A DNA stretch of 51,225 nt from Bacteroidota bacterium. Lineage in GTDB: Bacteria > Bacteroidota > Bacteroidia > NS11-12g > UBA9320. The stretch covers positions 1-51,225 of the forward strand of contig WGNA01000025.1 of assembly GCA_016124755.1 (NCBI GenBank). The letters run 5' to 3'. Made by a program: the position numbers and the translations under genes. Numbering within the stretch: the first letter of the stretch is position 1; every line of letters starts with the position of its first letter. Below the pieces are notes generated by a model. The model was not told the origin of the DNA. It did no database searches and was given only the letters and a program-made list of their open reading frames with translations. Positions 26,878-39,100 of the stretch are shown here, in pieces.

Positions 26878-29800
26878 TCATTTAGCAAGATTCACAAAAT
26901 ACATTTCAATGGCACCTTTGCCTTTCGCCTCAATTTTTCCACGATCTTCAAATTGAAATTCCGGATAGTTGTGTATTAATAAATACGTGTTGCGGCTAAT
27001 ATTTACTTTACCGGCTTCTCCGGAGCTCTCCATGCGACTTGCCGTATTTACCGTGTCTCCCCAGATATCGTACTGGAATTTTTTAAAACCTACAATACCC
27101 GCGACAACAGCGCCGGAATGAATGCCCGCCCGCATTTTAAACCCGGAATTTCCTTGTTGCCGGTTGCGGTTGGAAATAAATTCCTGCATATCAATTGCCG
27201 CTAAAACCAAATTTTTGGCAGACTCCGAAGATGTTATGCTGTTGTTTAAACTGAGATTGGTTAGTCCGCTGGCGGCCATGTAACTGTCTCCTATAGTTTT
27301 AATTTTTTCTATTCCATATTTTTCGCAGATCCGGTCAAAAGCTTTAAAACAAATATTGATTTCATGTACCAATTCTTTTGCACTCAGTTTTTCGGCGATT
27401 TGAGTGAATTCTTTAAAATCTGTGAAGAGAATAGAAACGGATTCAAAATAGCGAGCTTCCGATTCTCCGGTTTCTTTGAGTTCTTCCGCTACCTCCGACG
27501 GGAGAATATTTAACAGTAAAGAGTCGGATCGTTCTTTTTCTTTTTCAACTTCTTCCTTTTGTTTTTTAACTTCATCCCGTTGCTCCCGGATCTCTTTCGT
27601 GGCATTGTTTACCTCGGTTTCCAATTCTTTTTGCCGTTTTCTGAGGGATGTAGTTCGCCATCGCACCGTACCTGCCACAAACAACAAGGCTGCAAGTCCA
27701 TATCCGGTTCTGGCCCACCAGGTATGCCACCATGGTGGATTTATCGTGAAACGGTATTCGAACATTTCGCTCCAATTTCCCCCTTCACCAATTGCTTTTA
27801 TTTTAAAAATATAATGGCCAAAAGGCAGATTGCGAAAATCTGCTTTGGGATCAGCGTCGGGCTTACTCCATACGCTGTTTAGACCATCAAGAACGTAACT
27901 GTATTTTATTTTGTGTGGAGCTGACCAGTCGATCGCCGCAAAATGAAAGGTAAGGTGATTTTGATCGTACGGTAAAACCAATCCCACCGGATAATTCTCA
28001 AAATCTTTAACCGAATTAAAAACAATTTTTTCGTTCTCCGCTTTTTCGAGGTTTCGGAAATCAATAAATTTTTCATTAATATCTAATTGTTGTAAATGCA
28101 CTACAGGCGGCTTTGATTTTCTTTTGAATTTGTTAAGATCAAGCATTGCGAGGCTTTTACCGCTTCCCCACCAAATACGGTTTTCGCTATCGAGGCAAAC
28201 ACTGTTGGTATTAAAATCCAGACTTTTCAAACCATCGTTTTTTTCAAACCGAAATGTTTCAAATGCAATTGGAATTTTTGAGCTGATTAACGAAGCATTT
28301 TTTACTTTATCCGATACGGTAAATAGAGTAATTCCTCCTTTGGTGCTCACCCAGACATTGTAGTTGTGATCTTCAAAAACAGATGCGATGGTATTATTAC
28401 TCAGACCTTCTTTTTCGGTAAAATGGGTAAAATATTCACCATCGTATATAATCAAACCGCTACCCTCAGTTCCAAACCAAAGATTTCCAACGTGATCTTC
28501 AAAAATGGTCCGCACGAAATTATTGCTCATGCCTTCTTTCTCTGTAAAATGAGTAAAGCTGGCCTGATTCTGAGGCGAGGATGCAGGGCTGTATTTGGTT
28601 ACCCCACCGCCATCAGTGCCGAACCATATATTGCCGTTTCGATCTTCTAAAATGGTTAAAACGATGTTGTTGCTCAGACCTTCTTTTTCGGTAAAATGGG
28701 TGAAGAATTTACCGTTATACATACTTATCCCGCCTCCCTGAGTCCCGAACCACAGGTTTCCGTTTTTATCTTCTAAAATACACGAGACCGAATTATAACT
28801 TAATCCTTCGTATTCTGAAAACTGCGTAATTACGCCTCTTCCGTCAGGTTGATTTTCTCTGTTATACCTGTTTACACCGCGCCGGGTTCCAAACCACAAA
28901 TTGCTGTTGTGATCCTCGGTCATCGCTCTAACGGAATTATTGCTCAATCCATCTTTATCTGTTATTTGTATAAAAGATTCACCGTCGTACATATTTACGC
29001 CACCACCTTCTGTCCCGAACCAAAGATTTCCGTTTTTATCTTCCAGAATAGATCGCACAGAATGATTGCTTAGACCGTCCATCTCCGAAAAATGCCTGAT
29101 GGATTTGCGATTGTAAATATTTACACCACCCCCATAGGTCCCGAACCAGAGATGATCGCTTTGATCCTCCAGAATACATGAAACTGAATTTATACTTAAG
29201 CCTTCATTTTCGGTAAAGTGTGTAAAGCCCGACTTTCCTTCGTTGTACAAATTTACTCCTCCCTTCTTGGTGCAGAACCAAAGATTGCCTGCATGATCTT
29301 CGTGTATCGACGAGACCGAATTATCACTCAATCCTTCTTTTTTAGAATAATGAATACAGGAAGAACCGTCGTATTTCGTCACTCCGCCGTTTTCAGTTCC
29401 GAACCACATATTTCCCTGTTGATCTTCAATAATGGATAATATCGTGTTGTCGCTTAAACCATCTTTTTGAGACAGATGAGTAAAGGTTGCGCCATCGTAT
29501 TTAATTACTCCCTGATCATAGGTGCCAAACCAAATATTTCTGCTCCGGTCTTCATACATCGACATAATAAAATCTGAGCTTAAACCTTCTTTTACCGTAT
29601 AAAATGTAAAGCCGGTTTTGCCGGATGCTGTGTTTTTATGGTATTTACAAACTCCGCCACCTTCTGTACTGAACCACAGATTGCCATTTTTATCTTCGAG
29701 AATGGAGGTAATGAAATTATTATTTAATCCTTCCTTTTCGGTGTAATGAATTAGATGTGAGCCGTCATATCCGGTAATTCCACCGCCATAGGTGCCAAAC

Positions 29801-30600
29801 CAGATATTCCCTGATTTATCTTCTAATACCGACAAAACTTTATTACCGCTCAACCCTTCTTTTTCTGTGAAATGCGTAAAGGATTTTCCATCGTACCGGT
29901 CAACGCCGTTCCCCCAGGTTCCGAACCAGAGATTTCCTCTTTTATCTTCCAGCATGGATAAAATGATCGACGATGAAATGCCCTGATCAACATCGAGATA
30001 TTGTATGTCGCAGGTTGCAGCATCTTTGTATCGGGGAGCAGATGCAGGTACCGCCTGAGGTTGGTGGAAAGGAACGGTTTTACCTTTTGTTGGAAGCCAT
30101 ACGCCGGTTCTTATTTTATTTCCGGTGCTGTTGATGAGGAAATGATTGGTGTCGTTTATAGCTACCGGTTTTATCCGAATTGCTTTTAATGAATCGGGGT
30201 AAACAGGAATTTTGGAAAGGGCATCGGGAATAATGTGAATGTTCGGGTGTGCGTCTGTTCGGTTGAGCTGTTCGCGGCGAGGTACGGAGTACGTTTTTGG
30301 TTTGGCCACAAGCGCCGGCGAAATCACTTTACCGGCAACCGGAAATGGTACTCCGGTTTTTAGGGTATCTCCCAATGAATTGATCATGGGGTGAATCGAA
30401 TCTCCTGTAAACGGGTTCACTGTATAACCGCCAGTCGGATTCGCCTTAATTACCTGAGATCTCAGAAATAGCGATGGGGGAGTCTGGCTAACTTCCTGTT
30501 TATCCTGACAGCCCAACAGAAGCAGGAACAGGATGAGATATGTAAAATGTGTTTTCAGATTTAACCGGCCAGACTTGCCTCTCGTTTGACAAATTAACAC
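26878..30600 (-). CDS. Sensor protein: two-component-type beta-propeller, Y_Y_Y domain, TM helix and class III adenylate cyclase
   Basis: A 1240-residue sensor. The N-terminus carries a lipoprotein-like signal (FTYLILFLLLLGC). Residues about 195-810 hold 13 tandem regulator-propeller units (EGLSxNxVxSILEDxxGNLWFGTxGGGVxxYDGxxFTHFTEK) plus one divergent unit. A Y_Y_Y-like domain (YSYVLDGLNSVWSKP) follows. A TM helix lies near 955-975, then a Lys/Glu-rich coiled coil, then a class III nucleotide cyclase from about 1056. Metal-binding Asp residues are in FTDFKEFT and IGDSYMA; the transition-state Asn and Arg are in DTVNTASRM. Lys in IKTIGD and Asp in YDIWG are the pair that selects adenine, so cAMP is the predicted product. 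The start is GTG at 30600, two bases after the stop of the small frame upstream; a later start is possible. A propeller of this type usually sits on a histidine kinase. Confidence 0.92.
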   Translation of the reverse strand: MLICQTRGKSGRLNLKTHFTYLILFLLLLGCQDKQEVSQTPPSLFLRSQVIKANPTGGYTVNPFTGDSIHPMINSLGDTLKTGVPFPVAGKVISPALVAKPKTYSVPRREQLNRTDAHPNIHIIPDALSKIPVYPDSLKAIRIKPVAINDTNHFLINSTGNKIRTGVWLPTKGKTVPFHQPQAVPASAPRYKDAATCDIQYLDVDQGISSSIILSMLEDKRGNLWFGTWGNGVDRYDGKSFTHFTEKEGLSGNKVLSVLEDKSGNIWFGTYGGGITGYDGSHLIHYTEKEGLNNNFITSILEDKNGNLWFSTEGGGVCKYHKNTASGKTGFTFYTVKEGLSSDFIMSMYEDRSRNIWFGTYDQGVIKYDGATFTHLSQKDGLSDNTILSIIEDQQGNMWFGTENGGVTKYDGSSCIHYSKKEGLSDNSVSSIHEDHAGNLWFCTKKGGVNLYNEGKSGFTHFTENEGLSINSVSCILEDQSDHLWFGTYGGGVNIYNRKSIRHFSEMDGLSNHSVRSILEDKNGNLWFGTEGGGVNMYDGESFIQITDKDGLSNNSVRAMTEDHNSNLWFGTRRGVNRYNRENQPDGRGVITQFSEYEGLSYNSVSCILEDKNGNLWFGTQGGGISMYNGKFFTHFTEKEGLSNNIVLTILEDRNGNIWFGTDGGGVTKYSPASSPQNQASFTHFTEKEGMSNNFVRTIFEDHVGNLWFGTEGSGLIIYDGEYFTHFTEKEGLSNNTIASVFEDHNYNVWVSTKGGITLFTVSDKVKNASLISSKIPIAFETFRFEKNDGLKSLDFNTNSVCLDSENRIWWGSGKSLAMLDLNKFKRKSKPPVVHLQQLDINEKFIDFRNLEKAENEKIVFNSVKDFENYPVGLVLPYDQNHLTFHFAAIDWSAPHKIKYSYVLDGLNSVWSKPDADPKADFRNLPFGHYIFKIKAIGEGGNWSEMFEYRFTINPPWWHTWWARTGYGLAALLFVAGTVRWRTTSLRKRQKELETEVNNATKEIREQRDEVKKQKEEVEKEKERSDSLLLNILPSEVAEELKETGESEARYFESVSILFTDFKEFTQIAEKLSAKELVHEINICFKAFDRICEKYGIEKIKTIGDSYMAASGLTNLSLNNSITSSESAKNLVLAAIDMQEFISNRNRQQGNSGFKMRAGIHSGAVVAGIVGFKKFQYDIWGDTVNTASRMESSGEAGKVNISRNTYLLIHNYPEFQFEDRGKIEAKGKGAIEMYFVNLAK

Positions 30601-30602
30601 CG

Positions 30603-30959
30603 CTAAAGAGTATTTTCAATATGCAAAGAATTTCCGATCTGTTTTAAAGGAGTGTTTGTGTAGGTGTGCCACGTTAAAACCGATAATGTATCGATCTTGT
30701 TTAGCCAGTTCCAATTGCCAATTACCGTATCCACTTCCTGAATAAATCTGCTTTTGCTATAACCGGTTAAATCGAAATAGAAGTCGTACTGATTATAAAA
30801 TACATTTACCTCAGATGGAACACTATCGAGACAAATAATTTCTCTGTAAATACTGGAGTCACACTTTACGGTTGACCAAATATTTTGTTGTGCGGAGGTG
30901 GGGTTGAAGATGGTTAAGAAGGTGATAAAAGATGTGATTTGGACATTGTTGGTTTTTAT
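30603..30959 (-). CDS. Small exported protein without a standard start codon, directly upstream of the cyclase gene
   Basis: A minus-strand frame is open from 31013 to the TAG at 30605-30603, but has no ATG, GTG or TTG. The protein looks real: a signal-peptide-like start (KTNNVQITSFITFLTIFNPTSAQQ) followed by about 90 residues (NIWSTVKCDSSIYREIICLDSVPSEVNVFYNQYDFYFDLTGYSKS...). It ends two bases before the cyclase GTG, as an operon partner would. Possible explanations are a non-standard start such as ATA at 30959, a frameshift from the ATG near 30945, or loss of the true 5' end when the attC-like element at 30981 arrived. No family is recognised. If functional it could be a periplasmic partner of the sensor. 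Confidence 0.5.
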   Translation of the reverse strand: MKTNNVQITSFITFLTIFNPTSAQQNIWSTVKCDSSIYREIICLDSVPSEVNVFYNQYDFYFDLTGYSKSRFIQEVDTVIGNWNWLNKIDTLSVLTWHTYTNTPLKQIGNSLHIENTL

Positions 30960-30980
30960 TGTATTTTTTGAATAGGGGGT

Positions 30981-31110
30981 GTTAACAGTCTCGGCTATGA
31001 GTAGTAGCGTGGTTTAGAACTTAACTTTGCAAGTACATATCAAACTGAAAATCCGCGAGGATTTTCAGAAGTAGGCGAGAACAAGCAATTACTTATAGCC
31101 ATTGTTGGGT
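30981..31110 (-). repeat. attC-like element downstream of the DUF262 gene
   Basis: On the minus strand it opens ACCCAAC (31110-31104, fits RYYYAAC) and closes GTTAAC (30986-30981). Inner arms GGCTATGAG (30994-31002) and CTTATAGCC (31092-31100) match at 8 of 9 positions. A perfect 10-bp hairpin, CTGAAAATCC-GCGA-GGATTTTCAG, stands in the middle (31045-31068). The 130-bp length is within the attC range. The opening core is the exact complement of the GTTGGGT found upstream of the FRG gene, as expected for the two ends of one cassette. Confidence 0.5.
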
Positions 31111-31118
31111 ACAGTTTT

Positions 31119-32168
31119 TTAAAGTCCGAATTCCTGTTCCAAAATTCTAACCCTTTCTCTTATAGAACTTGCATCATTTGTACCCTGTTGCGACATTCTT
31201 TCAAATTCTAAATAATCAAAATTAGCATCCGTAATATCTTTTTCAGCAAGCTTTCTGTTTTCAGCTAGTTTGTCATAAAAGTCGAAAAATTTCTTTCTTG
31301 TAATAAGAGATAATTTATTATTGCTCATAGCATTTTTAAATAATAAATAATAAATAGCGATGGAAGATTGAGAACGTAACAAGCTATCTGAATCTATAAA
31401 TAGATTAGACATTTCTTTCAACACGGTCTTTACCTCGTTTTCATACTTATTTGGAGACAATCCTTTATCATTTTTATATTTAATAGTCATTGAATCCAGA
31501 TAAGGTTTTTTGGTATCAAGTATCTTTCCATTTGTTTCTAAACTGTAATTAAGAAAAAGAAGTCTTGCAGCAACTTCTCTATGTTGATAACGACTGTTAC
31601 TAAATTTTACTTTGTTTTTGAAAAAATTTGTGTCTGCTACCGCGCGTATTGTTTGAGCCATACTACCTCCAATTGCGTTTCTTTTTTCTGCAGCATTTAA
31701 TGGTACAGCTTCATTTAGTCTAGAAAACATATCTTCTATTAGGTCAATATCACTTGTTTCGACAATTACAATTGGTAAAATATACGAATCAAAGTTAATT
31801 TTAATTTTTGGGTATTCTTTAGCTAAATCAGTATATGAGAGACCTTTGAGCTTTGCAGATTTATCCTCAAAAAACTCAAAATCTTCTGCAATCGTGTATT
31901 CATCATTTATGAATTCCCAGATAGCTTCTAGTCTTTGTCTTCCATCTATAATTGAATATTCAAAATTGTCTCCAGGCTCAAGTAAATGAAAATACAATTT
32001 TGGAATATCATAATCATTAATTATTGAATCAATGAGTAATTGTTTTTTTTGAATTGTCCATACTCCTCCTGCTCTTTGGTATTCTGGTGAAGTATTAATA
32101 GCACTTTTTTCAGAGTTTACTCTCAATATTGTACTATTTCTATATGGTGTGGTTCTAATAGTTGCCAT
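31119..32168 (-). CDS. DUF262 (GmrSD N-terminal-like) protein
   Basis: A 349-residue protein whose first 150 residues match DUF262: VWTIQKKQLLIDSIINDYDIPKLYF, then the ParB-like catalytic or nucleotide-binding motif SIIDGRQRLEAIWEFINDEY, and IVIVETSDIDLIEDMFSRLNEAVPLNAAEKRNA. DUF262 proteins such as GmrS, SspE and BrxU relatives act in defence against modified phage DNA, usually with a DUF1524 HNH nuclease. Here that domain is absent and the rest is an alpha-helical tail of about 190 residues. The ATG overlaps the FRG gene stop (TAATG), so the pair is one operon. Sequence is AT-rich compared with the core genes. The role is inferred from domain only. Confidence 0.85.
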   Translation of the reverse strand: MATIRTTPYRNSTILRVNSEKSAINTSPEYQRAGGVWTIQKKQLLIDSIINDYDIPKLYFHLLEPGDNFEYSIIDGRQRLEAIWEFINDEYTIAEDFEFFEDKSAKLKGLSYTDLAKEYPKIKINFDSYILPIVIVETSDIDLIEDMFSRLNEAVPLNAAEKRNAIGGSMAQTIRAVADTNFFKNKVKFSNSRYQHREVAARLLFLNYSLETNGKILDTKKPYLDSMTIKYKNDKGLSPNKYENEVKTVLKEMSNLFIDSDSLLRSQSSIAIYYLLFKNAMSNNKLSLITRKKFFDFYDKLAENRKLAEKDITDANFDYLEFERMSQQGTNDASSIRERVRILEQEFGL

Positions 32169-32907
32169 TATTTTATATTTTGTGCTATACTTCCAAGTTC
32201 TGGAAATAGTTGAAATTTAGTTATTCCTATAATTTCTAATTCTTTAAGTAAATCATTTTTTTTAGCCGAGGGAATTATATATTTCCCAATGTGATTTTTT
32301 GGGTCTTCTCCTGCTTCATCAACAAAAATATTTTCCCTGTGTGAAATTGTAAAAACTCCTTGCTGTGCTTGAATTCTTGAGCTATTTCTTGCGGCAATTG
32401 CTGCCATTGGAAACAAACTTGTTTTTCTCTCCGCTGCTATTACACTGGGGAGATAATTGTTCAAATCATCGTCTTCAAATGATGGTATCTCAAAATCAAA
32501 ATCAGGTCTATATCGATTTCTTTTATTTAATTCTGTGGGGCTTAAAACCCAGAGCGCACCATCTTCATCCTTTTGAGTATCGTCAGAAATTGCAAAGTAT
32601 AGACCGACTAATGGGCTTTCACTCCAATCTAATAATCTTGTGGCAACACCATAGTGTTGCATTAAAAACATCCATTCAAATTCTGTTGAAGGTTTATTTT
32701 GTAGAATAAATGTTGCGTTTTGTTTGAATTTATTCAAATAATGAGATTCTGATGGCAAAGGGTCAATCCGCATTAGTTTAGGTTCCAATTTCCAATTAGA
32801 ATTACCTTGCCCTCGATACCAAATAGGTGCATCCGAGAATCCTTTTGGGATTTTAGTGAATCTATCAATTGACCGATAGATTCTATTTCGATTGTTTTAA
32901 ATTTCAT
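32168..32907 (-). pseudogene. FRG-domain protein gene with an apparent one-base frameshift
   Basis: The FRG domain is split between two frames. From ATG at 32907 the reading is MKFKTIEIESIGQLIDSLK, the usual N-terminal strand-helix. Then the frame must shift at the A4 run (32854-32851) to continue IPKGFSDAPIWYRGQGNSNWKLEPKLMR and the core FLMQHYGVATRLLDWSESPLVGLYFAISDD. Adding one A restores a 246-residue protein. Without it, translation could start only at 32788, giving 206 residues that lack the conserved YRG motif. FRG domains are named for F/Y-R-G and occur in defence-island and prophage proteins of unknown activity. The ATG is 18 bases from the cassette core GTTGGGT. It is coupled to the DUF262 gene by TAATG. 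A sequencing error is possible. Confidence 0.8.
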
Positions 32908-32925
32908 TTCTTGGTTTTAAATTGT

Positions 32926-33180
32926 ACCCAACGGTTTGCGCCCAGAAGACGTGAGGCATCGGGCTAAAAAGTTCGTTCATTACGAGGAAGTTAATTGGAA
33001 GAAAGTAGTTTTCCAATTGACAAAGTAACATGCTCTTTTGGCTGCTGTTATCGGTAGCTCTTCTTTTCATCCGAATTTCTGCCGTGCAAGTTTTCACTCA
33101 CGTTGCTCGACGCAATTTAATTTCATTTCCCTGTTGTAGAGAATATGCATTAATGTCTGTAATGCTTCTGTGCGTTGGCT
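32926..33180 (-). repeat. attC-like imperfect inverted repeat between cassettes
   Basis: The plus-strand left end ACCCAACGGTTTGCGCCCAGAAG (32926-32948) pairs imperfectly with CTTCTGTGCGTTGGCT (33165-33180). The minus-strand end GTTGGGT fits GTTRRRY exactly. An internal hairpin AATTGGAA ... TTCCAATT lies at 32993-33019. At 255 bp it is long for attC, so it could be a composite of two elements or an unrelated structured spacer. No gene is seen between 32933 and 33246. Confidence 0.4.
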
Positions 33181-33246
33181 GTGTCCACTCATTTAACTCT
33201 TTTGCTTTTTTTGAGTAATAATTTTGAATGTACCATGATTATTTAT

Positions 33247-34548
33247 TTAAAGATGAGCCGTAATTTTTACAACTTTTATATCACCCTCATAGACAAATTT
33301 ATAGGTAAGTTCATTTTCATGTTCACCATAAAAAAGTTTGTTATTACCAAAATGTATAACTTCTTTTCTCGTTGGGTTTTTCTGTCCAATATTTTTTAAC
33401 CACTCACAAAATGCATTTGCTTTTTCCTGAGAAGAAAAAATCAACTCTTCAATATTTTCTGTGCTTCCTCCTTCTATTGCTGGAGTGCTACTTATTTTGA
33501 TAGGAGTTGAATTACATGTAACCAGAAATCTAATTGGCTTAATTTCAGCAGAGTTCAACAAAACAATATTAGGAGTTTTGCCTTTGCCCTCATAATATTT
33601 TACCTTATCGTCACTTTCAATAAATGTTTTTGCTCCTCGTTTGTTTTTAACATTTCTGTAAATGTAGTTGTAATTGAGAGTTGCAGATAAATTTTGCCCT
33701 TCTTTAATTTGAGGCATAATAAATTTTCGAAAATATAGCTTAACACTATCTGCTGCCTGGCATTCGCCACTTTTATTTCTTAAATCAATAAATTCGGCAA
33801 AAGATTGTTCAACCCTTTTAAATTGTATAGTAACATCAAGAATTATATTTCCATTTAGGTCTATCTCACGAGTTCCTTCTTCCTCAACCTCAAGACTGTC
33901 AGGAGAAATTCTTCCGTTAAGAACTGCATAGCGGTATTTTATCTTTTGCTCTTCCGTTTTAGTAAGCCCGCCTTTGATTTCTCCCTTTGCAATTGTTTCA
34001 TCTGTTCCTGCACCAAGTGTAGCTTCCAAATTTTTTTCAAAGGTTACATCTGCAATATCAATATCAGCAAACTCAGTTTCAAACTTATTCCATTTTATAA
34101 ATTTCGCACTCGTATCCTCCAACACTAAAGAGAATTTCAAAAATTCAATTCTGTCAGCAAGAGAGAAATTATTTAGGTGTTTTAGTTTGCTGTAATCTCT
34201 AAATTTATTTACCGATAAAATAATTTTTATCCGTTTAGTTGTGTAGTCCAAGGTTGATTTCTCCGACACCTCCAAATAAGCGTTATTTAATTCTTCCTTA
34301 AAATCATCGTTGTCTTTGTATCGTTCACCAAGTTTATCTATCAAGGCCTGTTGCCCCTCGCCTTGCAGGTCCCAAAGAGTTTTCGATTCATCTTTTTTTT
34401 CACCTTCAGTTTCCACCGCACTAAAAAAACTCATTGTAACCAATGATTGTGAAGTTGTGCCGAATGATACAATCCTTTTGTATCGTTTTATTGTTGAGCA
34501 TCCTGCGACAATAGCAAGGAAACAAAATAGAAATACTTTTTTAGTCAT
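33247..34548 (-). CDS. Lipoprotein of unknown function
   Basis: A 433-residue protein with a lipoprotein signal (MTKKVFLFCFLAIVAGCST, lipobox AIVAGC, Cys17). The mature part is acidic and mixed alpha/beta. It includes a helical segment GEGQQALIDKLGERYKDNDDFKEELNNAYLEV, several strands with TKRIKIILSVN and LNGNIILDVTIQFKRVEQSF, and a C-terminal domain ENIEELIFSSQEKANAFCEWLKNIG. No family is recognised. It is the last of three AT-rich minus-strand genes lying between two attC-like elements, so it is probably part of one multi-gene cassette. Confidence 0.8.
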   Translation of the reverse strand: MTKKVFLFCFLAIVAGCSTIKRYKRIVSFGTTSQSLVTMSFFSAVETEGEKKDESKTLWDLQGEGQQALIDKLGERYKDNDDFKEELNNAYLEVSEKSTLDYTTKRIKIILSVNKFRDYSKLKHLNNFSLADRIEFLKFSLVLEDTSAKFIKWNKFETEFADIDIADVTFEKNLEATLGAGTDETIAKGEIKGGLTKTEEQKIKYRYAVLNGRISPDSLEVEEEGTREIDLNGNIILDVTIQFKRVEQSFAEFIDLRNKSGECQAADSVKLYFRKFIMPQIKEGQNLSATLNYNYIYRNVKNKRGAKTFIESDDKVKYYEGKGKTPNIVLLNSAEIKPIRFLVTCNSTPIKISSTPAIEGGSTENIEELIFSSQEKANAFCEWLKNIGQKNPTRKEVIHFGNNKLFYGEHENELTYKFVYEGDIKVVKITAHL

Positions 34549-34609
34549 GGGGTGTATTGATTATGTGTTTCTGTTTTTGACTTACTTTTTTTAGCAAGGA
34601 TATTTGTGG

Positions 34610-34831
34610 TCAAAGAAGAGGCAGTGCATCCACCCATATTTCTGCGGGGATGTCGTCAGAACCTGCTTCTAAACAAGATACGGTTTCCGTTTGTCCTGTA
34701 TTCTGTTTCCCGTTTTTTAAATATTTTCTACCACCACAACTTATCTGATTTGGAAAATTTCCTGTACTACTTCTGGCAAGTACATGAATGTAATTTGCTG
34801 TTTCGCGATTTGGGTCAGCAAGATAAAACAT
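34610..34831 (-). CDS. Small hypothetical protein
   Basis: A 73-residue frame (FYLADPNRETANYIHVLARSSTGNFPNQISCGGRKYL...VSCLEAGSDDIPAEIWVDALPLL). The composition is protein-like, with two Cys and a patterned N-terminus, but no family is recognised. The supporting evidence is position: 20 bp after the stop of the 34852 gene and 61 bp before the lipoprotein gene, same strand. It could be a spurious frame. Confidence 0.45.
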   Translation of the reverse strand: MFYLADPNRETANYIHVLARSSTGNFPNQISCGGRKYLKNGKQNTGQTETVSCLEAGSDDIPAEIWVDALPLL

Positions 34832-34851
34832 TGTATAAGGAGTTTTGATTT

Positions 34852-35172
34852 TTAATAATGTAAATATGATTTAGGTAATGGAGCCAACAGTCCTACTAAT
34901 GCACCAACAGCACCCGAAACAAATGCAGTAAATAAAGTTGTTACATATGTGTCAATTGTTTTACCGGCAAAAGTCAAAACAATTATTCCAATAATTACCA
35001 ACAGAACTGATGTACTAAGAGAGCCCAAAACCATTCTGTAAATCCAATTGTTAGTAACATAGGTCTGGAATTGTTGAATCGCTTTAACAGGGTCTTCTTT
35101 ATATTTCTTCTGTAAATCTGGGTTAGTTGGGAGTTCTTTCTGAAACTCTACAAAGCTTTTGATGTTTTGCAT
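34852..35172 (-). CDS. Small membrane protein with two TM helices and a Nif11-leader-like N-terminus
   Basis: A 106-residue protein. Residues 1-35 (MQNIKSFVEFQKELPTNPDLQ, then KKYKEDPVKAIQQF) resemble the FxxxLxxxPxLxxxxxxDPxxAI pattern of Nif11-type leader domains. Two hydrophobic helices follow: MVLGSLSTSVLLVIIGIIVLTF and VTTLFTAFVSGAVGALVGLLAPL, with a short loop GKTIDTY between them. The protein ends PKSYLHY. It may be a small effector or anchor for the downstream lipoprotein. The leader resemblance is inference; no maturation enzymes are near. It is first in a three-gene minus-strand unit. Confidence 0.75.
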   Translation of the reverse strand: MQNIKSFVEFQKELPTNPDLQKKYKEDPVKAIQQFQTYVTNNWIYRMVLGSLSTSVLLVIIGIIVLTFAGKTIDTYVTTLFTAFVSGAVGALVGLLAPLPKSYLHY

Positions 35173-35290
35173 GGTATTACTTTTTTGAAGAGAGGTTCAA
35201 TTATAATATCTTTTTGCCTTTGCCTAATTCATTCTGTTGTTAATTTCTTGATAGTTAGTTTAATGTTAGCATAGTCGCGATTGAGTTACC

Positions 35291-35419
35291 TATAACGGTT
35301 GGCATATGGCTTATGGCTGTTTAGAAGCACTTTCCTGTCCCCCGAAACTAAAGCTTGCTACAAGACGAAAACCTTGCTGGCAGACGTTCACCCGCCATAA
35401 GCTATATGCCTTGTTGTAC
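35291..35419 (-). repeat. attC-like element between the 35429 gene and the 34852 module
   Basis: On the minus strand it opens GTACAAC-AAGGC and closes GTTATAG. Arms GCATATGGCTTATGGC (35303-35318) and GCCATAAGCTATATGC (35394-35409) match at 15 of 16 positions. The 129-bp length is typical for attC. It begins ten bases after the stop of the 35429 gene. The gap 35173-35290 holds nothing else. Confidence 0.55.
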
Positions 35420-35428
35420 ATGTTTTTT

Positions 35429-35983
35429 TTAAGTTATCGCTCCATCTAACATTGAGTTATACTCTTCTAAATCATCTAATTTAGACCAAATTACGGTTTT
35501 CTCATTGTAAATCATATTATGCTTGTACCATTTGGATTTGTATGTTTTTCCTAGTGAGCTTTGAACTTTAATTCTGAACAAATCAAAGCTTTTTATGTCC
35601 TTGATTTTTTCTTCACTTAAATTGCTGTGATCGTCAGTTAGTTTTCCATATTCTCTCAACGTTTGACCTGGACTTAGTTTATTTGAGAAGTCAACATTTA
35701 CCATGTGAGAGGCATGAGTTAAAAGTCCCTTATCATTTCTGGTTTTGAGTTCAAATTCTGTTTTACTGAGATAAAGTTCTTCTTTACTTCTGTTGACAAT
35801 CGTAATGTCAAATAGATTAAGAACTTCCATCTCTTTTCCTTTTTTTAAATCGTATGTATAATAACTCCGACATATAAACCGCAAAGGCTTCAGATAATTT
35901 CTTATCATATCTAAGATTGCAGGTACAGCCAAGACTGTCGATAAAACAGCTGCATAGATTGTTAAATAGTCAAGTGGTTTCAT
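35429..35983 (-). CDS. Membrane-anchored protein of unknown function in an attC-like cassette
   Basis: A 184-residue protein with one N-terminal TM helix (LTIYAAVLSTVLAVPAILDMI) and a soluble part of about 150 residues. That part looks like a beta-sandwich (MEVLNLFDITIVNRSKEELYLSKTEFELKTRNDKG, GQTLREYGKL, FDLFRIKVQSSLGKTYKSKWYKHN). No family is recognised. The ATG is nine bases from a GTTGTAC end (35999-35993), and the stop is ten bases from the attC-like element carrying the complementary GTACAAC. So gene plus one element form a compact cassette of about 700 bp. It is AT-rich. Confidence 0.75.
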   Translation of the reverse strand: MKPLDYLTIYAAVLSTVLAVPAILDMIRNYLKPLRFICRSYYTYDLKKGKEMEVLNLFDITIVNRSKEELYLSKTEFELKTRNDKGLLTHASHMVNVDFSNKLSPGQTLREYGKLTDDHSNLSEEKIKDIKSFDLFRIKVQSSLGKTYKSKWYKHNMIYNEKTVIWSKLDDLEEYNSMLDGAIT

Positions 35984-35992
35984 TTAAATTAT

Positions 35993-35999
35993 GTACAAC
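35993..35999 (-). repeat. Cassette-boundary core GTTGTAC
   Basis: The heptamer on the minus strand (GTTGTAC) is identical to the outer core of the element at 35413-35419. It marks the 5' limit of the single-gene cassette. No second arm or integrase attachment site is recognisable in 36000-36133, which otherwise holds only AT-rich and CCACC-rich DNA. Confidence 0.35.
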
Positions 36000-36133
36000 A
36001 GTCCTATATCCTCTCAATTATTAGGTCTATCCCAAATATATTATTTCAACAAAACCAAATAATCACTCAACCAAAAATAACAACCACCACTTCATTCTCA
36101 ACCCCACCTCAATAAATTGTTTATAAATCTCTC

Positions 36134-39100
36134 TCACCCAATCACCACCACCAAATCGTCGGTTGCGACCATGGAGCCTTCGGGGAGAACGAGTTTTTGA
36201 ATTTTACCGGCAACGGGAGCGGAGGCGGTGGTTTCCATCTTCATCGCTTCGATCACAAACAGCGGTTCGCCCTTTTTAATTTCCTGATCTTTTTCAACCA
36301 GAATTTTAGATAGTCTTCCCTGTAATGGCGCGCCGATTTCATTTTCGTTAGTCGTATCGGCAACGGCATTTTTTATCTTTTCTACTTTTAAAGTGCGATC
36401 CGGAACTTCCACATTTCGCGTTTGTCCGTTCACCTTAAAAAATAAAATGCGAATGCCGTCTTCGTTTGGCGGTCCTACCGATAGCAGTTTTACGATAATG
36501 GTTTTTCCGGGAGAAATTTCATACACGATTTCTTCCTGCTCTTTCATTCCGAAAAAGAAAGCCTTGGTGGGAATGGTGCGCACGTCGTCGTACAATCCGA
36601 ATTTTTCGTACGCGTCTTCCCATACTTTCGGATACAAACTCCACGACAGAAAATCGGTGAAATCCAGATCGCGCGGATAGCCTTTCTGAAACCGGTCTAA
36701 AAACGCGGGAAATTCGAGATCAAAATTGATGGGTTCCAAATGGTGATTCGGTCGCTTCTTCATCGGCTTCTGATCTTTTAGAATAATCTTCTGAAGCTTT
36801 TTCGGAAAACCACCAACCGGCTGACCCAAATCACCCCGGAAAAACGACTGCACTGATTCGGGGAAAGAAAGCGTATCGCCTTTTTCCATTACGTCTTTTG
36901 TGGTGAGTCCGTTGCTCACGAGAAATTGCGCCATGTCGCCAACCACCTTGCTGCTCGGTGTCACCTTTACAATGTCGCCGAACAATTCGTTCACGGCTTC
37001 GTACATCGTCGTGATCTCGTCGAACTTTTCGGCCAATCCCAGCGACTGCGCCTGTGCTTTGAGATTGCTGTATTGTCCGCCCGGAATTTCGTGCTGAAAA
37101 ACTTCGGCGGTTCCGGCTTTTAATCCGCTTTCAAACGGGTAATAATATTCGCGAACCAATTCCCAGTACCGACCGAGCGCATTCAGGTTTTCGATGTCGT
37201 ACGGATTTTCCCGCTTGTGAAAACGCATCATTTCCACCACCGAATTAAAATTGGGTTGAGATGTGAGTCCGCTCAAACCGCTGAGGGCAACATCCACCAC
37301 ATCTACTCCCGCTTCGATCGCTTTTAAATACGTGGCAGGCTGAAGCGAAGACGTATCGTGCGTGTGCAGGTGAATCGGCAATTTAATTTCTTCCCGAAGT
37401 GCCGTAATTAATTCCTGAGCTGCATACGGTTTCAGCAGTCCGGCCATGTCTTTTATCGCCAGAATATGCGCACCGGCATTTTCGATGTCTTTGGCTAATT
37501 GAATATAATATTTGAGGTCGTATTTGGTCTTTTTCGGATCGAGAATATCGCCCGTATAACACAGCGAAACTTCGGCTAATCCTTTGGTTCGTTTGCGCAC
37601 AAAACCAATGGAAGGTTCCATCGACTTCATCCAGTTGAGCGAGTCGAAAATGCGGAAGATGTCGTTCCCGTTTTCGAACGCAACTTCAATAAATTTCTCG
37701 ATCAGATTGTCGGGATACGCTTTATAACCGACACCGTTTGAACCGCGCAGAAGCATTTGCAATAAAATGTTCGGAACGGCTTTCCGGATTTCCTGCAACC
37801 GGTGCCACGGATCTTCCTGAAGAAAACGCAGACACACATCGAAGGTCGCTCCGCCCCAAACTTCCATGCTAAACGTTTGCGGATGATGAAGTGCAAAAGC
37901 TTTCGCAGCGGGCAGCATATCCACGGTTCGCATGCGCGTGGCGAGCAGACTCTGGTGCGCGTCGCGGAGTGTTGTGTCGGTGTAGTGAATCTTCTTTTCT
38001 TTTCGCAGCCATTCGGCAAATTTTTCAGGCCCCATTTTGTCTAACCGCTGTTTCGTTCCTTTTAAAGGCGTTGCGGATTCGTCGTATTCGGGAAGGGAAA
38101 TGTGCGGGAATTTTTTATTCGGATCGATGAATTTCACATCGGGATTTCCGTTCACCACAATTTCTCCGAGAAAGCGAACGGCCTTGGTGGCGCGATCCAT
38201 TCCACGGCGGATGTTGAACAATTCGGGATGTTGTTCGATAAAGGCAACTGTGGCTTTTCCGGCTTTAAAATGTTCGTGATGAATGATGTTCGACAAAAAC
38301 GGAAGATTGGTTTTTACACCGCGTATCCGGAATTCCCGAAGGGCGCGATCCATCTTGCGGCAGGCTCCGTCTAACGTTCTTCCGTGCGCGGTAACTTTCA
38401 CGAGCATGCTGTCGAAAAACGGACTCACTGTTACGCCCTGATACAGACTTCCGGTGTCGAGGCGAATTCCGAAACCGGCGGCGCTGCGGTAGGTAGTGAT
38501 GGTTCCGTAATCCGGTTTAAAATCGTTTTCGGGATCTTCGGTTGTGATGCGGCATTGCAGCGCGATTCCGTTGATGTGAATGGATTCCTGATTCGGAATT
38601 TTAATTTGCTCGTCTTGTAATTTATAACCGCCGGCAATAAAAATCTGGGCTTTCACTATGTCGATTCCGGTCACAACTTCGGTAACCGTATGCTCTACCT
38701 GAATACGCGGATTTACTTCGATAAAATAAATGTTGTTCGCTTTATCGACCAGAAATTCCACCGTTCCGGCATTGTTGTATCCCACGTGTTTGGCGATGCT
38801 GAGTGCGTATTCAAAAAGCTGATTGCGCACTTCATCGGGCAGGGAAGGAGAGGGCGCAATTTCCACCACTTTCTGATACCGGCGCTGAACGGAGCAGTCG
38901 CGTTCGTGGAGGTGAACGATGTTGCCATGGCGATCACCGAGAATCTGCACTTCGATGTGTTTGGGTTCTTCCACAAATTTTTCGAGGAAGACGGTGTCGT
39001 TTCCGAATGCATTCGCGGCCTCGCGACGGGCTTCAAAAAAGGAATTCGAAAGTTGCTCTTCGTCGCGGATCACACGCATTCCCCGACCGCCACCGCCGGC

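What the first reader, a model, noticed from the sequence alone, without database searches (positions are those of the whole stretch)
31119..32907. FRG-domain + DUF262 two-gene unit as a candidate uncharacterised defence module
An FRG-domain protein and a DUF262 protein are translationally coupled (TAATG) and sit together inside one cassette-like unit. DUF262 is the N-terminal module of GmrSD-type modified-DNA restriction proteins, but here the DUF1524 nuclease is missing, and FRG proteins have no defined activity. The pairing suggests that FRG supplies the effector or sensor. The context (AT-rich cassette next to other unknown genes) fits defence or toxin-antitoxin cargo.
Basis: partly seen in the sequence, partly recalled or inferred. 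Interest (0 to 1): 0.65.

Follow-up and report, generated by a model that had tools for sequence, protein, structure and literature searches.

The report
Mobile FRG–DUF262 two-gene defence cassette
Two overlapping bacterial genes, one shaped like an NAD-using toxin enzyme and one like an energy-driven DNA-sensing switch, travel together across many phyla inside gene cassettes, prophages and restriction systems, which points to an undescribed anti-virus defence pair; the copy in this genome looks broken.

Summary
At 31119-32907 (minus strand) an FRG gene overlaps a DUF262 gene by one base (TAATG), there is no DUF1524, and the unit is AT-rich. The FRG gene is frameshifted near its start, so this copy is probably inactive or misassembled.

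The pairing is real. In a scan with the DUF262 profile, FRG lies directly upstream on the same strand in 76 of 80 genome loci and 8 of 11 viral contigs. The two proteins diverge in step (r = 0.85, 0 of 1000 permutations). The pair spans 12 phylum-level groups, mixed in the tree. It sits in integron-type cassettes (window and at least five other loci), near prophage repressor genes, and beside Eco29kI-type restriction-modification genes.

FRG's predicted fold resembles ADP-ribosyltransferases. The DUF262 protein resembles BrxU/SspE/DndI without their nuclease. Most likely it is an anti-phage module in which a DUF262 NTPase switch controls an NAD-using FRG effector. Defence is inferred from context; no activity was tested.

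No paper in the library searched holds both FRG and DUF262. FRG alone is known as a predicted ADP-ribosyltransferase and matches PADLOC candidate PDC-S15. I rate the pair a new variant of DUF262-gated defence.

The parts
32168..32907 (-). FRG gene; start ATG at 32907, stop overlapping the next gene; frame broken around 32840-32875
   Evidence: Pfam FRG 5.2e-26, PADLOC PDC-S15 8.6e-52; frame break by comparison with N-termini of relatives
31119..32168 (-). DUF262 (GmrSD_N) gene, 349 aa, no DUF1524
   Evidence: Pfam 5.2e-17, PADLOC NsnA 9.8e-31 and PD-T4-2_A 4.3e-19, model m27d8154bf45a like BrxU/SspE/DndI
32919..32932 (-). 5' end of the cassette, GTTGGGTACAATTT (R' half site)
   Evidence: inverted repeat I11; arms and cassette length 1829; GTT-headed terminal repeats in 9 of 86 loci, window included, against 0.28 expected
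31104..31117 (-). 3' end of the cassette, AAACTGTACCCAAC (R'' half site)
30981..31110 (-). attC-like recombination site after the cassette, with a terminator-like hairpin at 31045-31068
   Evidence: fold z -2.2, 5 of 200 shuffles fold as well; similar sequence in 47 of 395 Bacteroidota genomes, own included, best copies of 124 nt or more 94% identical; hairpin
32922..33190 (-). long, degenerate attC-like site before the cassette
   Evidence: inverted halves visible in sequence; fold z -1.7, 9 of 200 shuffles fold as well: weak
35412..36000 (-). another cassette of the same array (184-aa ORF, TGTTGTACA / TGTACAACA ends), followed by an attC-like site at 35286-35426
   Evidence: repeats I17 and I7; fold z -2.1, 7 of 200 shuffles fold as well

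Best explanation
FRG–DUF262 is a mobile two-gene anti-phage module. The DUF262 protein is an NTP-driven sensor/switch of the GmrS/SspE/BrxU/DndI kind that has no nuclease of its own. The FRG protein is an effector with an ADP-ribosyltransferase-like fold that uses NAD+, either depleting it or transferring ADP-ribose to a cellular or phage target. When DUF262 senses a feature of invading DNA (a modification, its absence, or a restriction event), it releases or activates FRG and infection is aborted. Shown here: the pairing, its coupling, its co-divergence, its spread and its carriers. Predicted: both folds. Inferred: the trigger, the NAD chemistry and the abortive outcome. The window copy is one integron-type cassette carrying this module, with a frameshifted FRG gene.
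For: FRG directly upstream of DUF262 on the same strand in 76 of 80 genome loci and 8 of 11 viral contigs found with the DUF262 profile. Of 82 single-ORF pairs, in 38 the nearest in-frame ATG overlaps the FRG stop (ATGA or T[A/G]ATG) and in 77 it lies within 15 nt. Co-divergence r = 0.848, 0 of 1000 permutations. Tree over 12 phylum-level groups needing 24 label changes, least possible 11. FRG model pLDDT 94.8; the 15 rows shown with Z 5 or more, and Foldseek ranks 1-15, are ADP-ribosyltransferase-superfamily entries by my reading of titles, for some by recall (TreTu Z 6.2, Tpt1 5.9, cholera A1 5.9). DUF262 model: BrxU Z 8.7, range 6-349 against 1-423 of 580; SspE 8.0; ParB CTPases about 7; DndI 5.8. 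DG[KR]QR and RLN invariant in 83 of 83; FRG-motif R and G in 82 of 83; H74, D83, W84, R167 and Q171 in 83 of 83. Protein clusters with C5-methylase, Eco29kI and Vsr members within three genes of the pair in 11, 9 and 6 of 84 loci (Pfam checked on 3, 3 and 1 of them). Phage repressor genes upstream in 3 viral contigs, two of them with an integrase or integrase fragment downstream. Integron-type ends.
Against: No activity was measured. The FRG fold evidence is modest: Z 6.2 is below the 7 to 8 that models without a clear match often reach (note), Foldseek gave no hit at E 0.001 or better, and I could not identify a canonical ADP-ribosyltransferase glutamate. The search started from DUF262 proteins that are FRG-paired, so 76 of 80 describes that clade, not all DUF262. 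From the FRG side only 3 of 30 loci have this DUF262. Four genome loci and three viral ones lack FRG, and four more have a split FRG. Apart from the restriction link, nearest neighbours show few defence families: of 68 PADLOC families matched, the 25 shown are mostly single members. The control genes also match some defence models, including Mokosh, and they are Bacteroidota only while the neighbours come from many phyla.
Confidence: 0.6

Rival explanations
1. Toxin-antitoxin pair: FRG is a toxin held inactive by DUF262, kept mainly for maintenance of cassettes and plasmids rather than phage defence.
For: Two small, often overlapping genes carried in cassettes, on a plasmid and in viral contigs. 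FRG is broken in the window and split in 4 of 84 loci that keep DUF262, as if the toxin is lost first (biased, since loci were picked by DUF262).
Against: DUF262 keeps its NTPase motif in 83 of 83 sequences and aligns along its length with a restriction protein, more than a plain antitoxin needs. Recurrent link to restriction-modification genes.
Confidence: 0.2
2. Type IV-like restriction accessory: the pair acts on modified DNA directly, with FRG modifying DNA (ADP-ribosylation) instead of cutting it, without abortive NAD depletion.
For: DUF262 relatives read modified DNA (PMC10952713, passages). C5-methylase-cluster genes near the pair in 11 of 84 loci, at separate places in the DUF262 tree. 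DNA- and RNA-acting ADP-ribosyltransferases exist (Tpt1 and Pierisin among fold matches).
Against: No DNA-binding evidence for FRG; the fold match does not separate protein, nucleic-acid and small-molecule targets.
Confidence: 0.15
3. Chance neighbours in a cassette array with no joint function.
For: Cassette arrays put unrelated genes side by side; both families mostly occur without each other.
Against: 76 of 80 loci, overlapping stops and starts, co-divergence, and one cassette holding both genes.
Confidence: 0.02

Closest known systems
GmrSD / BrxU type IV restriction, and SspE and DndI of phosphorothioate systems
   Same: DUF262 ParB/Srx-type NTPase domain plus helical part; aligned ranges reach BrxU 1-423 of 580 and DndI 6-430 of 594
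   Different: No DUF1524 nuclease; the motif is DG[KR]QR in 83 of 83, not DGQQR; the partner is an FRG protein
Menshen (PADLOC NsnA; that NsnA is Menshen's gene is recalled)
   Same: DUF262 protein without DUF1524; NsnA model E 9.8e-31 over residues 4-345 of 349
   Different: Menshen has a predicted OLD nuclease partner (PMC10952713, passages); here FRG
PD-T4-2
   Same: DUF262 component, model E 4.3e-19
   Different: PMC10952713 lists HEPN for it (passages), not FRG
Frg domain as ADP-ribosyltransferase and PADLOC PDC-S15
   Same: FRG family; best PDC-S15 model E 8.6e-52; potential anti-viral NAD-using domain (PMC9503650, passages)
   Different: PDC-S15 appears to denote a single-gene candidate (reading of the name is recalled); DUF262 has 0 occurrences in PMC9503650
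DUF262 + SIR2 pair on a Hymenobacter plasmid (L036)
   Same: Short DUF262 next to an NAD-related domain, beside DUF4007 and PAPS-reductase genes
   Different: SIR2 instead of FRG, and downstream of DUF262; DUF262 more distant (32.5%)

Membership tests
GmrSD type IV restriction | DUF262 / GmrSD_N domain | tested here: met
   Pfam PF03235 E 5.2e-17, 63.1 bits against cut-off 33.2
GmrSD type IV restriction | DUF1524 HNH nuclease, fused or adjacent | tested here: not met
   No PF07510 match in the window's genome; 19 of 30 genomes searched have none; in the other 11 the distance to the pair was not worked out, but DHIYP-like motifs occur in ORFs of only 3 of 96 loci
ADP-ribosyltransferase superfamily (FRG) | ADP-ribosyltransferase fold | tested here: met
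   Model pLDDT 94.8; Foldseek ranks 1-15 and the 15 rows with Z 5 or more are of that superfamily, but Z is at most 6.2 and Foldseek E at best 6.3e-3, so modest; agrees with PMC9503650
ADP-ribosyltransferase superfamily (FRG) | Catalytic residues, including an acidic residue in the usual place | tested here: inconclusive
   FRG Arg conserved in 82 of 83 and, if ungapped, at the place of residue 7 of cholera A1 (range ends); no canonical Glu identified
Menshen | OLD-type nuclease partner beside the DUF262 gene | tested here: not met
   Neighbours are FRG on one side and a Reg_prop/cyclase protein on the other; three further ORFs have no PADLOC match
PD-T4-2 | HEPN-type second gene | tested here: not met
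   Partner matches Pfam FRG only
PADLOC PDC-S15 defence candidate | Match to a PDC-S15 model | tested here: met
   E 8.6e-52 over FRG residues 2-235
Integron gene cassette | GTT...AAC cassette ends and attC-like folding site | tested here: met
   Terminal repeat, downstream site, and relatives L037, L048, L077, L083, L097; a stricter home-made attC scan found none in the window
Integron gene cassette | Integron integrase in the same genome | tested here: not met
   Best integrase_gron stretches 109.8 and 89 bits, cut-off 265; over the cut-off in 1 of 12 further genomes or records, that of L050, 485 bits
Toxin-antitoxin pair | Toxicity of one gene cancelled by the other | not testable with these tools
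   Needs expression

The most novel reading that the evidence does not exclude
A widespread branch of the GmrSD/SspE restriction lineage has swapped its DUF1524 nuclease for a separately encoded FRG ADP-ribosyltransferase. It forms a DNA-sensing, NTP-gated, NAD-consuming immune system that backs up restriction-modification and travels as integron cassettes and prophage cargo.
Probability: 0.4. Interest if true: 0.8.

Novelty: new variant of a known kind. Interest (0 to 1): 0.62.

Why it matters
If true, DUF262 is a general sensor module that can drive very different effectors (HNH nuclease, OLD nuclease, SIR2, and now an ADP-ribosyltransferase-fold FRG protein), and the FRG family gains a defined two-gene system with an obvious experiment. 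The repeated link to C5-methylase/Eco29kI genes suggests a second line that may fire when restriction fails. The same module appears in integron-type cassettes, viral contigs and restriction loci, so it is highly mobile.

Tried and rejected
Chance adjacency: rejected. Separate DUF1524 gene nearby: rejected for the window and, by motif, for 93 of 96 loci. General DUF262-FRG rule: rejected. Of the 27 more distant DUF262 loci fetched (L007-L033, about 1.5 kb of flank), only L016 has an FRG-like ORF beside it, a divergent one, and only 3 of 30 FRG loci have this DUF262 clade (one more, L166, had a weak DUF262-like hit at 7e-6). Programmed frameshift in the window FRG: considered; I saw no classical slippery site at the break by eye, but did not test it. 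PDB by sequence: FRG profile gave two weak hits (E 0.18 and 0.49), DUF262 none. Rfam: nothing at 30000-36300. NCBIfam: no useful hit. Two guessed integron-style patterns were not informative: one matched 2+2 times against 34+29 for its backward control, the other once, in the window. My attC scan was too strict and found nothing in the window or in any locus whose site is visible by eye; it reported 2 in L039. L053's repeat is low-complexity, L047's site is unclear and L050 shows one half-site, so I do not count these three. Own-family relatives: none of 38 other genomes carries the gene beyond one weak match, so no empty site was compared.

Literature searched: FRG with DUF262, 0 papers; with anti-phage as well, 0; FRG domain with phage, 5; FRG domain with ADP-ribosyltransferase, 2; FRG-domain phrases from 2018 on, 5; other terms. 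The library is open-licence PMC only, so 'not in print' is not claimed. Papers seen as passages only: PMC10952713, PMC9503650, PMC9519451, PMC13092281, PMC12839542; all others as listings.

Full report
What is there. On the minus strand, an FRG gene (ATG at 32907) runs into a DUF262 gene (31119-32168) with a one-base TAATG overlap. Pfam gives FRG E 5.2e-26 and GmrSD_N E 5.2e-17. The start codon and the WYRGQ motif of FRG are in different frames; comparison with L006, L037-L039 and others places the break around 32840-32875. Either the gene is mutated or the assembly is wrong there; I cannot tell. The FRG residues invariant among the 83 aligned sequences, all after the break, are present in the window copy, and the DUF262 ORF is complete.

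The cassette. The pair sits alone between GTTGGGTACAATTT and AAACTGTACCCAAC, 1829 nt in all, followed by a site beginning AACAATGGCTATAAGTA and ending in a GTT core. Matched GTT-headed ends of 10 nt or more occur in 9 of 86 FRG–DUF262 loci, the window (where I first saw them) included, against 0.28 expected from mismatched loci. By eye, attC-like sites with paired halves follow in L037, L048, L077, L083 and L097; L050 shows a half-site; L047 is unclear and L053 is low-complexity. The downstream site of the window and that of a Flavobacteriaceae MAG (L048) are 92% identical over 121 nt, although the DUF262 proteins are 55% identical. Sequence similar to this site occurs in 47 of 395 Bacteroidota genomes, own included (36 of 171 genera); the best copies of 124 nt or more are 94% identical, and some of the 47 are short matches. 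A Persicobacter plasmid holds it at 16 places. Single-strand folding of the window's three sites is better than shuffles but only moderately (z -2.1, -2.2, -1.7; 7, 5 and 9 of 200 shuffles as good). My own strict attC scan missed them all. No integron integrase passes the curated cut-off in the window's genome; of 12 further genomes or records only the host of L050 has one.

The pair is conserved. A profile of four DUF262 proteins (all FRG-paired, an acknowledged bias) brought 80 genome loci and 11 viral contigs; 96 genome stretches matched and the best 80 are kept by the tool. FRG lies directly upstream on the same strand in 76 and 8 of them; in 4 of these 84 FRG is split. Of the seven without FRG, L099 starts at the contig end and L059's DUF262 lacks its N-terminal part; tblastn found no FRG remnant in any of the seven. 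Of 82 single-ORF pairs, in 38 the nearest in-frame ATG overlaps the FRG stop and in 77 it lies within 15 nt; two pairs have no ATG in the stretch scanned. Pairwise distances of the two proteins correlate at 0.848, reached by 0 of 1000 permutations; shared descent contributes to this. The DUF262 tree (82 rows) mixes 12 phylum-level groups and needs 24 label changes where 11 would be the least; some rows are metagenome bins, whose names can be wrong. In a quick tree without bootstrap and with several long branches, FRG proteins of the pair form nearly one clade against 26 FRG proteins not paired with this DUF262: 2 changes, shuffled mean 24.4.

Fold of FRG. The model of the intact L037 protein has pLDDT 94.8. 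Among solved structures, Foldseek ranks 1-15 (best E 6.3e-3) and the 15 rows with Z 5 or more in the second look are ADP-ribosyltransferase-superfamily entries by my reading of the titles, for some by recall: Rhs toxin TreTu 6.2 (105 aligned, 3.1 A), Tpt1 5.9 (84, 2.5 A), cholera A1 5.9 (119, 3.6 A). The scores are modest: the tool notes that models without a clear match often reach Z 7 to 8, so the weight rests on the uniform list. The range ends (26 to 1, 28 to 3) put the FRG arginine at residue 7 of cholera A1 if ungapped; that residue 7 is catalytic is recalled. A published analysis already places Frg in this superfamily, lists it among signal-generating enzymes and says it might be an NADase (PMC9503650, passages).

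Fold of DUF262. The model (pLDDT 93.9, pTM 0.66) aligns with BrxU, range 1-423 of 580 (Z 8.7, 280 aligned, 10.5 A, so domains are shifted), SspE 8.0, ParB CTPases about 7, and DndI 5.8. In effect it looks like BrxU without its C-terminal part; that the nuclease lies there is recalled. The motif is DG[KR]QR in 83 of 83, never DGQQR. Reported roles of relatives: NTPase activity that switches a nuclease on modified DNA (PMC10952713, passages).

Company it keeps. Within three genes of the pair, blastp clusters holding C5-methylases (11 of 84 loci), Eco29kI endonucleases (9) and Vsr (6) recur; Pfam was checked on three, three and one of their members. Eight of 141 nearest neighbours match Eco29kI in Pfam. 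These loci are 9 of the 11 rows of one clade, plus L058, L075 and L125 elsewhere in the tree. Among 130 genes from 14 Bacteroidota regions no model named as restriction enzyme or methyltransferase matched in PADLOC at 1e-10, though Mokosh, mads, DpdF and others did; this control is Bacteroidota only, while the neighbours come from many phyla. Three viral contigs carry a phage repressor gene upstream: next to FRG in L118 and L120, with one small ORF between in L119; an integrase lies downstream in L120 and an integrase fragment in L119. In L121 the next gene is a terminase small subunit, and in L117 the second gene downstream is a terminase large subunit. On plasmids, a Hymenobacter record has the annotated pair, and another Hymenobacter has DUF262 with SIR2 beside phosphorothioate-type genes.

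Limits from the other side. From the FRG family, 52 of 395 Bacteroidota genomes have a member, and only 3 of 30 FRG loci examined, own included, have this DUF262 next door. DUF262 relatives in 395 genomes (55 with a match) mostly lack FRG: of 27 more distant loci (L007-L033) only L016 has an FRG-like ORF beside it, a divergent one. So the unit is one specific clade, not a property of either family. In 38 other genomes of the window's family and order the gene is absent apart from one weak match.

Mechanism. I judge an infection-triggered, NTP-gated, NAD-using effector most likely (0.6), with toxin-antitoxin (0.2) and DNA-modifying restriction (0.15) as rivals. The pairing and mobility are shown, the folds are predicted, and the trigger and chemistry are inferred.

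Noticed in passing
window 30981-31110; L207; L208; L209; L211; L213: The attC-like site is part of a widespread Bacteroidota repeat (47 of 395 genomes, 16 places on a Persicobacter plasmid) lying between mostly same-direction genes. In G182 (L208) a 272-aa tyrosine recombinase gene (HxLRH motif) lies at the end of such a run in the opposite direction, as in an integron, but below the integron-integrase cut-off.
   Followed up: partly
window 31045-31068: The attC-like site carries a 10-pair hairpin followed by T's in terminator style, kept letter for letter in L048.
   Followed up: no
L036 (NZ_CP110137.1): Short DUF262 gene followed by a SIR2 gene beside DUF4007 and PAPS-reductase genes, another NAD-related partner for DUF262.
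   Followed up: no
L016 (G297:C20): A second, divergent FRG-like gene directly upstream of a divergent DUF262 gene, outside the clade studied.
   Followed up: no
L183 and L184: Longer FRG proteins (about 455 aa, FRG domain near 190-290) in P2-like phage P22H1, next to a reverse-transcriptase-like gene on the other strand, and in phage PhiR11_1, next to a 350-aa protein without Pfam match; no DUF262 seen beside either.
   Followed up: partly
window 33247-34548, 34852-35172, 35429-35983: Three further cassette-array ORFs of 433, 106 and 184 aa with no Pfam match above cut-off and no PADLOC match.
   Followed up: no
window 26878-30600: 1240-aa protein with 12 two-component-regulator propeller repeats, Y_Y_Y and a guanylate/adenylate cyclase domain.
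   Followed up: no
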